Source of the DNA: an uncultured Clostridia bacterium | Lineage (GTDB): Bacteria; Bacillota; Clostridia; Christensenellales; Borkfalkiaceae | DNA length: 33,098 nt | NCBI GenBank assembly: GCA_944336975.1 | Contig: CALVLH010000017.1 | Coordinates: 1 to 33,098 of the forward strand | Direction: 5' to 3' | Shown: piece after piece, positions 1 to 30,099 of the stretch | Numbering within the stretch: position 1 is the first letter of the stretch | Layout: each line of letters starts with the position of its first letter | The notes under the pieces: model-generated | What the model was told of the DNA's origin: nothing | Seen by the model: only the letters and a program-made list of their open reading frames with translations | Database searches by the model: none | Position numbers and translations under genes: made by a program

Positions 1-564
1 CCGAAGTTGCAGGAGCAGTTGAAACAAAAGGAAAAAGAGATAGAAAATATCGTCAATGCCGTGCAGAAGGGCTACGCTACGGAAACATTATTGAAACGAC
101 TTGACGGGCTGGAAAAGGAGAAGATTGAGATAAGCGAAGCGATTGCCAAAGAACAGCTTAAAGCTCCGATCTTCTCACAAGACCATTTTAAAATGGCTCT
201 CTCCAACTTTCGCAAGATAGACATAACCACACAGGAAGGCAAACGCAAGATAATAGATACATTTATCAACGCAATTTACCTTTATGACGACCACTTAAAA
301 ATTATATACAATGCCAACGGTAAAGAGGAAACCATAAGCCTTGCAGAACTCGAAAGTTCAACTTTGTTTTCACGCGGGGCACCAAAAAAAACGGCAAAGG
401 ATTTTTCCTTTTGCTGTTTTTTTGTTAACGAATCTATGACAGGATTTGAGGGTGGAGACGTTTGCGGGAGCAAACGGGCGAAGGGCGTCACGGTTCGCAG
501 TCGTCCATTCCCCTTCCGCAGCCCGATCGCTTCCCCAAAGCGATCGGCGGGGCGCGCCGCCTAA
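1..564 (+). CDS. Large serine recombinase, C-terminal part (5' end outside window)
   Basis: The frame is open from base 1, so the start and the catalytic domain lie left of the window. What remains is a Lys/Glu-rich coiled-coil stretch (about residues 3-55 of the visible part), then a segment ending in IDTFINAIYLYDD and a short beta-rich piece. This is the usual C-terminus of clostridial large serine recombinases, which integrate and excise mobile elements. The normal family end is probably near the SRGAPKK segment (about 375-390). After that the frame runs on through a T-tailed hairpin (384-423) and into a structured repeat (435-577) before reaching a stop, so the last 50-60 residues look like run-on translation, not a domain. 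The gene probably marks one end of an integrated or decayed element. Confidence 0.75.
   Translation, partial: PKLQEQLKQKEKEIENIVNAVQKGYATETLLKRLDGLEKEKIEISEAIAKEQLKAPIFSQDHFKMALSNFRKIDITTQEGKRKIIDTFINAIYLYDDHLKIIYNANGKEETISLAELESSTLFSRGAPKKTAKDFSFCCFFVNESMTGFEGGDVCGSKRAKGVTVRSRPFPFRSPIASPKRSAGRAA
384..427 (+). terminator. Intrinsic terminator inside the recombinase tail
   Basis: The stem GCAAAGGA / TCCTTTTGC (one bulged T) has an A-run before it and seven T's after it, so it could work in both directions. It lies inside the open reading frame. This supports the view that the recombinase originally ended close to this point. Confidence 0.6.
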
Positions 565-577
565 AATCCTCTTTTCT
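435..577 (+). repeat. Structured repeat, copy A
   Basis: This is a hairpin-rich element of about 140 bases that shares its conserved blocks with copy B at 29792-29947. The left block TATGAcaGGATTTGAGGG is followed by GGAGaCGTTTGC. Hairpin 1 is CGTTTGC-GGGA-GCAAACG (459-476). Arm 2 pairs GGGC/GCCC (476-479 with 521-524) and GAAGGG/CCCTTC (480-485 with 511-516). Hairpin 3 is CGATCGCTT/AAGCGATCG (524-532 with 538-546). The right block is GCGCGCCGC and then AAATCC (564-569), which can close the whole unit by pairing with GGATTT (442-447). I see no convincing reading frame of its own. It is probably a non-autonomous mobile repeat or a structured RNA. Confidence 0.65.
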
Positions 578-740
578 GTTCCGCACGCGATCGCCCGAAC
601 CGCTTTTCCGCAAAATGCGCTTCGCGCCAGTTTATTTTTTGCGAGCCCTTCTTTTCATAACGCAATCAGAACAGACGAAAGCAATTTTTATTCTGTATTT
701 AGCTTGACTTTTACCGTTTGGATATGCTGTTTTATATTTG

Positions 741-29651: not shown

Positions 29652-29741
29652 GCAGAGATGGCGGAGCGGTCGAACGCGCACGATTCGAAATCGTGTGATG
29701 CAGGAATGTATCCAAGGGTTCAAATCCCTTTCTCTGCGCCA
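29652..29741 (+). tRNA. tRNA-Ser (anticodon CGA)
   Basis: A class II tRNA of 90 bases including an encoded CCA. The acceptor stem is GCAGAGA/TCTCTGC. The anticodon stem CACGA/TCGTG holds the loop TTCGAAA, giving CGA, which reads UCG. The variable arm is long, as in Ser tRNAs. The T arm is AAGGG-TTCAAAT-CCCTT. Its 3' 23 bases recur at 29925-29947. Confidence 0.93.
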
Positions 29742-29781
29742 AAAATCGACAATGAGCTTTTTGCTCATTGTCGATTTTTTT
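29741..29781 (+). terminator. Terminator after tRNA-Ser
   Basis: AAAAATCGACAATGAGC, a TTTTT loop, and the complementary arm, followed by T's. It resembles the hairpin at 30100-30137, with matching changes on both sides of the stem. Confidence 0.8.
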
Positions 29782-29791
29782 GATTCACGGT

Positions 29792-29947
29792 TATGAAAGG
29801 GATTTGAGGGAGGAGGCGTTTGCATAAGCAAACGGACGAAGGACAACAAAGTGCATGACCGCTTTGTTCTTCCGTAGTCCGAACAGTCCTGCGGACTGTT
29901 TGCCGGAGCGCGCCGCTATAGGCGCAAATCCCTTTCTCTGCGCCAAA
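29792..29947 (+). repeat. Structured repeat, copy B, ending in a duplicate of the tRNA-Ser 3' end
   Basis: This is the second copy of the element at 435-577. TATGA-GGGATTTGAGGG (29792-29810) and GGAGGCGTTTGC begin it. Hairpin 1 is CGTTTGC-ATAA-GCAAACG (29817-29834). Arm 2 pairs GGAC/GTCC, GAAG/CTTC and AACAAAG/CTTTGTT (29834-29880). Hairpin 3 is AACAGTCC/GGACTGTT (29882-29900). GCGCGCCGC follows. A 12-bp outer stem, GAAAGGGATTTG/CAAATCCCTTTC (29795-29806 with 29925-29936), closes it. The right arm is also the start of a 23-base exact copy of the tRNA-Ser 3' end (29925-29947, original at 29721-29743), 204 bases apart. There is no protein frame of its own. Confidence 0.7.
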
Positions 29948-29955
29948 CCGAAGAT

Positions 29956-29980
29956 AAGGGCGCATCTTGCGCCCTTTCTT
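29956..29980 (+). terminator. Terminator after the duplicated tRNA end
   Basis: AAGGGCGCA-tct-TGCGCCCTT followed by TCTT. It may be the original terminator of tRNA-Ser before the 204-base unit was inserted. The rest of 29981-30099 shows nothing clear. Confidence 0.55.
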
Positions 29981-30099
29981 CATCTCTCGGACTTCGGTCA
30001 TTTACGTTTTAATAAATTCCCTCGTCCTCGCATTTGAAAGTGCACAATCTGCAACCCTTCTGCTCGATTTGGAGGGTAGCATTTTTATCCAATAAACCC

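What the first reader, a model, noticed from the sequence alone, without database searches (positions are those of the whole stretch)
435..577. Structured repeat family with compensatory changes between two copies
Copies A (435-577) and B (29792-29947) share TATGA..GGATTTGAGGG, GGAGRCGTTTGC, and GCGCGCCGC in the same order. Their inner arms differ in sequence but keep pairing: GGGC/GCCC against GGAC/GTCC, CGATCGCTT against AACAGTCC with its own partner, and outer GGATTT/AAATCC against GGGATTTG/CAAATCCC. Changes that preserve pairing point to selection on an RNA or single-stranded DNA fold. The loops and hairpin tips vary most. Both copies lie after a T-tailed hairpin. It could be a non-autonomous IS200/IS605-like unit or an omega-RNA/HEARO-type RNA; I cannot confirm either.
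Basis: partly seen in the sequence, partly recalled or inferred. Interest (0 to 1): 0.7.

Follow-up and report, generated by a model that had tools for sequence, protein, structure and literature searches.

The report
Tiny mobile cassettes inside tRNA genes
The two look-alike structures belong to a family of roughly 200-letter, gene-free DNA cassettes in uncultured gut Clostridia that sit at the end of many different tRNA genes, each carrying a direct and a reversed copy of a piece of the tRNA it sits in, and that probably move, possibly as folded single-stranded DNA.

Summary
Copies A and B share a core of about 120 nt with five helices. 71 of 103 genomes of the genus carry it, 25 of 396 in an order sample, and in a phylum sample of 398 only the own genome. 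Covariation is strong (16 of 32 pairs in 18 copies), almost without G-U pairs, which favours a DNA fold over RNA. No Rfam family fits.

Of 82 copies with a tRNA gene close upstream, 81 start 58-70 nt behind it. The left outer arm is the reverse complement of that tRNA's nt 55-67 (12.4 of 13; 9.0 permuted); the right flank repeats nt 57-76 (17.9 of 20; 12.5 permuted). One orthologous tRNA locus shows the cassette absent, present, and in swapped order with a second cassette type. I read it as a non-autonomous mobile cassette inserted at the tRNA T-loop, perhaps through a folded single strand, as attC or CTXphi sites do. The recombinase is unknown, and how both arms come to fit each tRNA is open. 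IS200/IS605 and HEARO are not supported.

The parts
29652..29741 (+). tRNA-Ser(cga), the gene into which unit B is inserted; its nt 57-76 are also repeated at 29926-29945
   Evidence: ARAGORN, Rfam RF00005, sequence
29742..29781 (+). Unit B: hairpin with T-run directly behind the tRNA (terminator-like, T1)
   Evidence: sequence; comparison with other loci
29782..29794 (+). Unit B: spacer
   Evidence: sequence
29795..29807 (+). Unit B: left inverted arm, reverse complement of tRNA-Ser(cga) nt 55-67 (13 of 13; its last two bases are the first two of the core)
   Evidence: (m5=13)
29806..29925 (+). Unit B: conserved five-helix core
   Evidence: R1 match 109.3 bits (B was in the training set)
29926..29945 (+). 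Unit B: tail, direct repeat of tRNA nt 57-76 including CCA
   Evidence: sequence
29946..29998 (+). Hairpin region behind unit B (T2); differs from T1
   Evidence: sequence; T1/T2 score 0.46; end approximate
384..423 (+). Hairpin with T-run before copy A, directly behind a CCA that is not part of a recognised tRNA
   Evidence: sequence; no tRNA called there
424..436 (+). Copy A: spacer
   Evidence: sequence
437..449 (+). Copy A: left inverted arm; no matching tRNA upstream (best 6 of 13)
448..560 (+). Copy A: core, decayed, last helix incomplete
   Evidence: R1 match 72.5 bits (A was in the training set)
564..585 (+). Copy A: probable remnant of a tRNA-tail copy; pairs with only about 7 nt of the left arm
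   Evidence: sequence; tail match 2 of 11 in register

Best explanation
A and B are members of a family of non-coding, non-autonomous mobile DNA cassettes of about 200 bp that insert at the T-loop of tRNA genes, at about nt 56/57. A unit consists of a tRNA 3' end that restores the gene, its own terminator-like hairpin, a short spacer, a 13-nt inverted copy of tRNA nt 55-67 and a conserved five-helix core; after insertion the displaced tRNA 3' end lies at its right edge as a direct repeat. Shown: the family, the covariation, the position behind tRNAs, both tRNA-derived arms, and presence and order differences at one orthologous tRNA. Inferred: the units move; the core works as folded single-stranded DNA; inverted arm and tail pair into a stem that imitates the right half of the target; a recombinase encoded elsewhere exchanges a strand there, in the manner of attC or CTXphi sites. 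How the arms come to match each tRNA is not explained.
For: Family and covariation. Position behind a tRNA, 81 of 82 at 58-70 nt; left arm 12.44 of 13 against 9.01 +/- 0.15 permuted. Tail 17.91 of 20 against 12.54 +/- 0.25 permuted, 62 of 82 at 18 or more. At tRNA-Ser(gct): G001 without this unit next to the tRNA, G062 with it, G081 with it behind a second cassette type. Tandem units 198-203 nt apart in five of 17 sources with more than one match. G-U at 0.78% of core cells (1.4% with the loop-closing pair) against 7.8% in tRNA stems. Broken copies are common, as expected of a mobile unit without host function.
Against: No helper is identified and no excision or insertion event has been seen. 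Four of 82 left arms match at 10 or fewer of 13, and 20 of 82 tails are decayed or cut. The nearest core shares the tRNA type only (24 of 101) more often than the genome only (10 of 101), and neither in 55. Core identity between tRNAs within a genome could come from gene conversion. The G001 contig ends 74 nt behind its tRNA, so a unit farther on cannot be excluded. Paired changes could partly stem from template switching (PMC8794818). Copies from related genomes are not independent, so the permutation figures overstate the sample.
Confidence: 0.55

Rival explanations
1. The units do not move by a dedicated mechanism. They are old repeats at tRNA ends that multiply by slippage and homologous recombination, exchange cores by gene conversion, and keep perfect hairpins and matching arms by template switching at replication.
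For: Reciprocal-looking recombinants L159 and L155; identical or 98% identical cores at different tRNAs with different hairpins or arms; many hairpins behind the tRNAs are near-perfect palindromes; template switching is known to make paired changes (PMC8794818, passages).
Against: Does not explain how units first reached tRNAs of at least seven amino acids at one spacing, nor presence, absence and swapped order at one locus, nor the nearly invariant unpaired core segments.
Confidence: 0.22
2. A structured RNA made by read-through from the tRNA or from its own promoter, acting on the neighbouring tRNA or as a guide RNA (regulatory RNA, omega-RNA or bridge-RNA-like).
For: Conserved structure and single-stranded segments; the left arm is complementary to the neighbouring tRNA and, where tRNA and tail differ, agrees with the tRNA at 57 of 59 sites.
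Against: G-U pairs hardly more frequent than A-C, unlike tRNA stems from the same loci. The unit lies behind a terminator-like hairpin. No Rfam match. Many broken copies. An RNA-guided nuclease would keep cutting the intact tRNA target beside it (inference). Transcription was not tested.
Confidence: 0.13
3. Non-autonomous IS200/IS605- or RAYT/REP-type unit moved by a Y1 transposase.
For: Small, hairpin-rich, and apparently acting as a single strand; Y1 genes somewhat more frequent in carriers (20 of 71 against 5 of 32).
Against: p = 0.22; no Y1 match in the own genome or in 51 of 71 carriers. A 20-nt repeat of the target and repair of a tRNA gene are not features of those groups (recalled).
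Confidence: 0.04
4. Remnants (attachment sites) of larger integrative elements that use the tRNA as target, with the genes lost.
For: Tail repeats are the usual mark of tRNA-integrated elements; a large-serine-recombinase-like fragment lies just before copy A (phrog_95, E 3.5e-6).
Against: Units of the same length and order of parts at many tRNAs and genomes, often in tandem. No intact large version was seen in the loci I looked at, but I did not survey the genes around the units systematically.
Confidence: 0.06

Closest known systems
Integron gene cassettes and attC sites
   Same: Arrays at one anchor site; a palindromic site with conserved structure that is used as a folded single strand (PMC4792948, passages)
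   Different: No gene in the unit, anchor is a tRNA T-loop instead of attI, no integron integrase in the own genome; arms specific to the neighbouring tRNA
CTXphi integration by host XerCD
   Same: A stem folded from one strand that imitates a double-stranded site, with the enzyme supplied by the host (PMC4792948, passages)
   Different: No phage genes; target is a tRNA gene, not dif (recalled); use of the XerS-like enzyme is only a guess
Genomic islands and prophages integrated in tRNA genes
   Same: Insertion within a tRNA gene, restored 3' end, direct repeat of the 3' end; T-loop sites are known (PMC2647930, passages, citing Williams 2002, which I did not read)
   Different: About 200 bp, no integrase, plus an inverted copy of tRNA nt 55-67 and a conserved multi-helix core
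MITE and REP/BIME palindromic repeats
   Same: Short, non-coding, multi-copy, hairpin-forming (recalled)
   Different: Strict position at tRNA T-loops and arms specific to the neighbouring tRNA

Membership tests
tRNA-integrated element | Direct repeat of the tRNA 3' end at the far edge, gene restored | tested here: met
   62 of 82 tails at 18 or more of 20; the upstream tRNAs were called intact by ARAGORN
tRNA-integrated element | Own integrase gene | tested here: not met
   Units of about 200 nt; adjacent units 198-203 nt apart in five sources, too short for one
Integron cassette (attC) | Integron integrase in the genome | tested here: not met
   Own genome only: its one PF00589 protein fits XerS best; integron integrase 53.5 bits against a cut-off of 265. 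Other genomes were not scanned for it
Integron cassette (attC) | Recombination of a folded single strand | not testable with these tools
   Only indirect: Watson-Crick covariation almost without G-U and DNA folding scores
Integron cassette (attC) | R and L boxes with the AAC/GTT crossover | not tested
   No search for these boxes was made
IS200/IS605 non-autonomous unit | Y1 transposase to act in trans | tested here: not met
   None in the own genome; 20 of 71 carriers. A helper in another cell cannot be excluded
HEARO / omega-RNA | Match to the Rfam model | tested here: not met
   No match at gathering score; none in permissive scans of A, B and L039
HEARO / omega-RNA | IscB-like gene nearby | not tested
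   Neighbouring genes were not searched for it
Retroelement (reverse-transcribed unit) | Reverse transcriptase in carriers | tested here: not met
   16 of 71 carriers against 8 of 32 others, p = 0.80; none in the own genome

The most novel reading that the evidence does not exclude
An integron-like system anchored on tRNA genes: several families of gene-free cassettes enter at the T-loop of many different tRNAs as folded single-stranded DNA, and at each insertion both ends are made from the target (a direct copy of nt 57-76 on the right, an inverted copy of nt 55-67 on the left), so that one core can colonise tRNAs of different sequence.
Probability: 0.3. Interest if true: 0.9.

Novelty: new variant of a known kind. 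Interest (0 to 1): 0.74.

Why it matters
If right, tRNA genes are docking sites for minimal cassettes whose ends fit each target. That would show how little DNA a mobile unit needs, give a natural folded-strand site outside integrons and filamentous phages, and perhaps point to a retargetable insertion system. It also carries a caution for RNA discovery: strong paired covariation need not mean RNA; the near absence of G-U pairs told the two apart here.

Tried and rejected
Rfam at gathering and permissive thresholds: tRNAs, and otherwise only matches below gathering scores. Reverse transcriptase as helper: 16 of 71 carriers against 8 of 32 others, p = 0.80. Y1 transposase: 20 of 71 against 5 of 32, p = 0.22. 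Large serine recombinase: 50 of 71 against 22 of 32, p = 1.0. Number of tyrosine recombinases: mean 3.37 in carriers, 3.06 in others.

RNA-guided homing: unlikely because the intact target stays beside each copy (inference). A retro-mechanism in which a stop near tRNA nt 58 makes the tail: set aside for lack of any reverse transcriptase association. Hairpin plus tail as a target-site duplication: T1 and T2 score 0.85 or more in 21 of the 62 copies with good tails but lower in 41, so not general. T1 made by fold-back of the native terminator: not borne out, since T1 and T2 have unrelated sequences in many filled sites.

Literature: searches for such elements or their tRNA site listed no paper whose title or abstract start describes them; 26 papers name Borkfalkiaceae, 20 of them listed, none about this by its listing. 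Only an open-access library was searched, so this does not show absence from print. Passages of three papers were read, no whole paper.

Full report
Check of the observation. BLAST within the own genome links A and B (E about 2e-8) and finds further copies behind tRNA-Ser(gct) (two in tandem) and tRNA-Gly(ccc) (tandem) and one near tRNA-Arg(ccg). Model R1 gives 9 matches in the genome, one of them behind a tRNA with the leucine-type sequence seen.

Core structure. I aligned 18 cores, with the outer arms left out on purpose, and counted pairs for a five-helix structure: 93.8% of cells paired, 16 of 32 pairs with changes on both sides, 63 such cells against 16.1 +/- 3.2 in shuffles (0 of 500), and 31-45% paired when the partner is slid. 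The structure was drawn from these sequences, which favours it. Model R1, searched in 100 loci, gave 115 matches; 110 distinct rows show 96.2% paired, 25 of 32 pairs with two-sided changes, 382 cells against 102.9 +/- 8.5. That alignment is fitted to the model and leans towards it. The first hairpin has either two U-A pairs or a G-A/A-G double mismatch in its middle in most copies. Unpaired pieces such as GAGGGTGGAGGC and GGGGCGCGCC are largely invariant.

DNA or RNA. In 152 distinct cores G-U makes up 35 of 4481 cells (0.78%) without the loop-closing pair, 63 of 4626 (1.4%) with it; A-C makes up 0.45%. In the acceptor and T stems of 95 tRNAs from these loci G-U is 7.8% and A-C 0.44%. One-sided to two-sided changes are 23 to 573 in the core and 70 to 365 in the tRNAs. 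I take this as evidence for pairing at the DNA level. Template switching at replication can also make paired changes (PMC8794818, passages), so it does not prove selection on a single-strand fold. Other RNA families were not used as controls. DNA folding gives z = -4.93 (B), -3.33 (A) and -4.71 (L039).

Range. 71 of 103 genomes of the genus at E 0.01, a few of them only by weak matches; 25 of 396 in an order sample at E 0.001, 24 in the same family and one in another; in a phylum sample of 398 only the own genome at E 0.0001. Searches of over 40 genomes use strict filters and lose weak matches. NCBI places the first two in Clostridia; the name Borkfalkiaceae for the family is my inference. The same exact motif gives no match in IMG/VR, and one copy gives none in phages or plasmids by blastn.

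Link to tRNA genes. The 173 matches reduce to 157 distinct ones. 106 have a same-strand tRNA within 900 nt upstream: Ser 41, Leu 24, Pro 22, Gly 10, Thr 3, Arg 3, Val 2, Lys 1. In 83 the tRNA ends within 75 nt; 23 have it farther up; 51 have none called, 15 of these with under 110 nt of upstream sequence. Among the 23, 12 show the complement of the left arm (11 or more of 13) within the 110 nt upstream; among the 36 others, 17 do: these are tails of a preceding unit or tRNA ends that ARAGORN did not call. The rest, copy A included, show none. Of the 83, L205 lacked the anchor used for the arm. Of the other 82, 81 lie at 58-70 nt and one at 47.

The two tRNA-derived arms. The 13 nt at the left edge equal the reverse complement of tRNA nt 55-67 (counted back from CCA as 76): 12.44 of 13 for the own tRNA, 9.01 +/- 0.15 when tRNAs are permuted (2000 permutations, maximum 9.74). 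Four copies match at 10 or fewer. The right flank equals nt 57-76: 17.91 of 20 against 12.54 +/- 0.25; 62 of 82 reach 18, 20 are decayed, truncated or foreign. Where tRNA and tail differ (59 sites in nt 57-67) the left arm agrees with the tRNA 57 times, with the tail never, with neither twice. The arms thus seem to decay one by one, which suggests that the match is set at insertion and not kept up by pairing with the tail. Copies from related genomes are not independent.

Insertion. At tRNA-Ser(gct) the upstream flanks identify orthologues. In G001 the tRNA is followed at once by the hairpin of another unit type, F3; its contig ends 74 nt on. G062 has our unit (F1) between tRNA and F3-type hairpin, closed by a second nt 57-76. 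G081, 97% identical upstream, has F3 first, then a tRNA tail, then the same F1 hairpin and a decayed F1. Two unit types in opposite order at one tRNA is what one expects if newcomers enter at the tRNA itself. In tandem arrays neighbouring matches are 198-203 nt apart in five of the 17 sources with more than one match; other spacings also occur.

Spread between tRNAs. Cores of one genome at different tRNAs are on average more alike (0.785, 68 pairs) than cores at the same tRNA in different genomes (0.690, 420 pairs). By nearest neighbour the picture is weaker: of 101 cores, 12 share genome and tRNA, 10 genome only, 24 tRNA only, 55 neither. In DXAJ01 two cores differ at 2 of 120 positions but carry arms for Ser(gct) and Pro(cgg). 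In CANRNE the cores at a Pro and a Ser(cga) site are identical over 117 nt while hairpins, arms and tails differ. Either the ends are rewritten when a unit moves, or cores are exchanged by gene conversion between units already in place. L159 and L155 look like reciprocal products of homologous recombination.

Helper. Reverse transcriptases (24 of 103 genomes), Y1 transposases (25) and large serine recombinases (72) show no association with the units (p = 0.80, 0.22 and 1.0). Tyrosine recombinases occur in 101 of 103 genomes; 12 of 71 carriers, the own genome among them, have exactly one match, though these assemblies are incomplete. In the own genome it lies beside hflX and fits XerS best (195.9 bits, below the cut-off of 267). 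A host Xer acting on a folded strand has a precedent in CTXphi (PMC4792948, passages); nothing here tests it.

Conclusion. The unit works like a tRNA-targeted cassette without its own enzyme, possibly with a folded-strand site. It is not shown to be an integron cassette. The tests that I could run for IS200/IS605 and HEARO were not met. Whether the ends are made from the target at each insertion, the boldest reading, is open.

Noticed in passing
L223 (behind tRNA-Ser(gct)), L226, L227; similar hairpin behind units in L120 and L189: A second unit type (F3, about 240 nt in L223) with its own hairpin, a T-arm-like inverted piece and a conserved ACAGCCGCCGAA..TTCGGCTG segment, closed by a tRNA-tail copy.
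   Followed up: partly
L235, L241, L243, L234, L230, L238, L249, L251 behind tRNA-Ser(gct): A third type (F2): hairpin followed by an inverted copy of the tRNA 3' end (up to 14-16 nt) and a body with CACGAGTTCGCGC-like segments; a tail copy is seen in some (L235, L241, L243, L234), not in all.
   Followed up: partly
L105, L107, L192, L057, L030, L130: Behind the last hairpin there are stretches that look like degenerate reverse copies of the tRNA itself (16 nt perfect in L130); unexplained.
   Followed up: no
L159 3655 and L155 3825 (one genome, prefix CANRNE): Left arm of one tRNA and tail of another, in reciprocal combination: probable chromosome rearrangement by recombination between two units.
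   Followed up: partly
window 1-423: The window begins with the C-terminal part of a large-serine-recombinase-like protein (phrog_95, E 3.5e-6; no Pfam match) whose reading frame runs into copy A; a CCA stands directly before the hairpin of copy A.
   Followed up: partly
L025 (own genome C6), L026, L225: Another palindromic repeat (TCCCGAAAAA..TTTTTCGGGA type followed by GAGGAGC) has inserted into units of this family.
   Followed up: no
L045, L046, L048, L236 and behind several units (L034, L187): A recurrent terminator-like hairpin of the type GTGGGACGTAAGTTGAAC..GTCCCA stands directly behind tRNAs without a unit and behind the tail of some with one.
   Followed up: no
L256 (own genome C14): The only PF00589 match of the own genome is a XerS-like protein beside hflX, suggesting a single-recombinase Xer system.
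   Followed up: partly
many loci, for example L107, L132, L169, L140, L176: Units often lie within a few hundred bases of a contig end, so assemblies may break at them and copy numbers may be underestimates.
   Followed up: no
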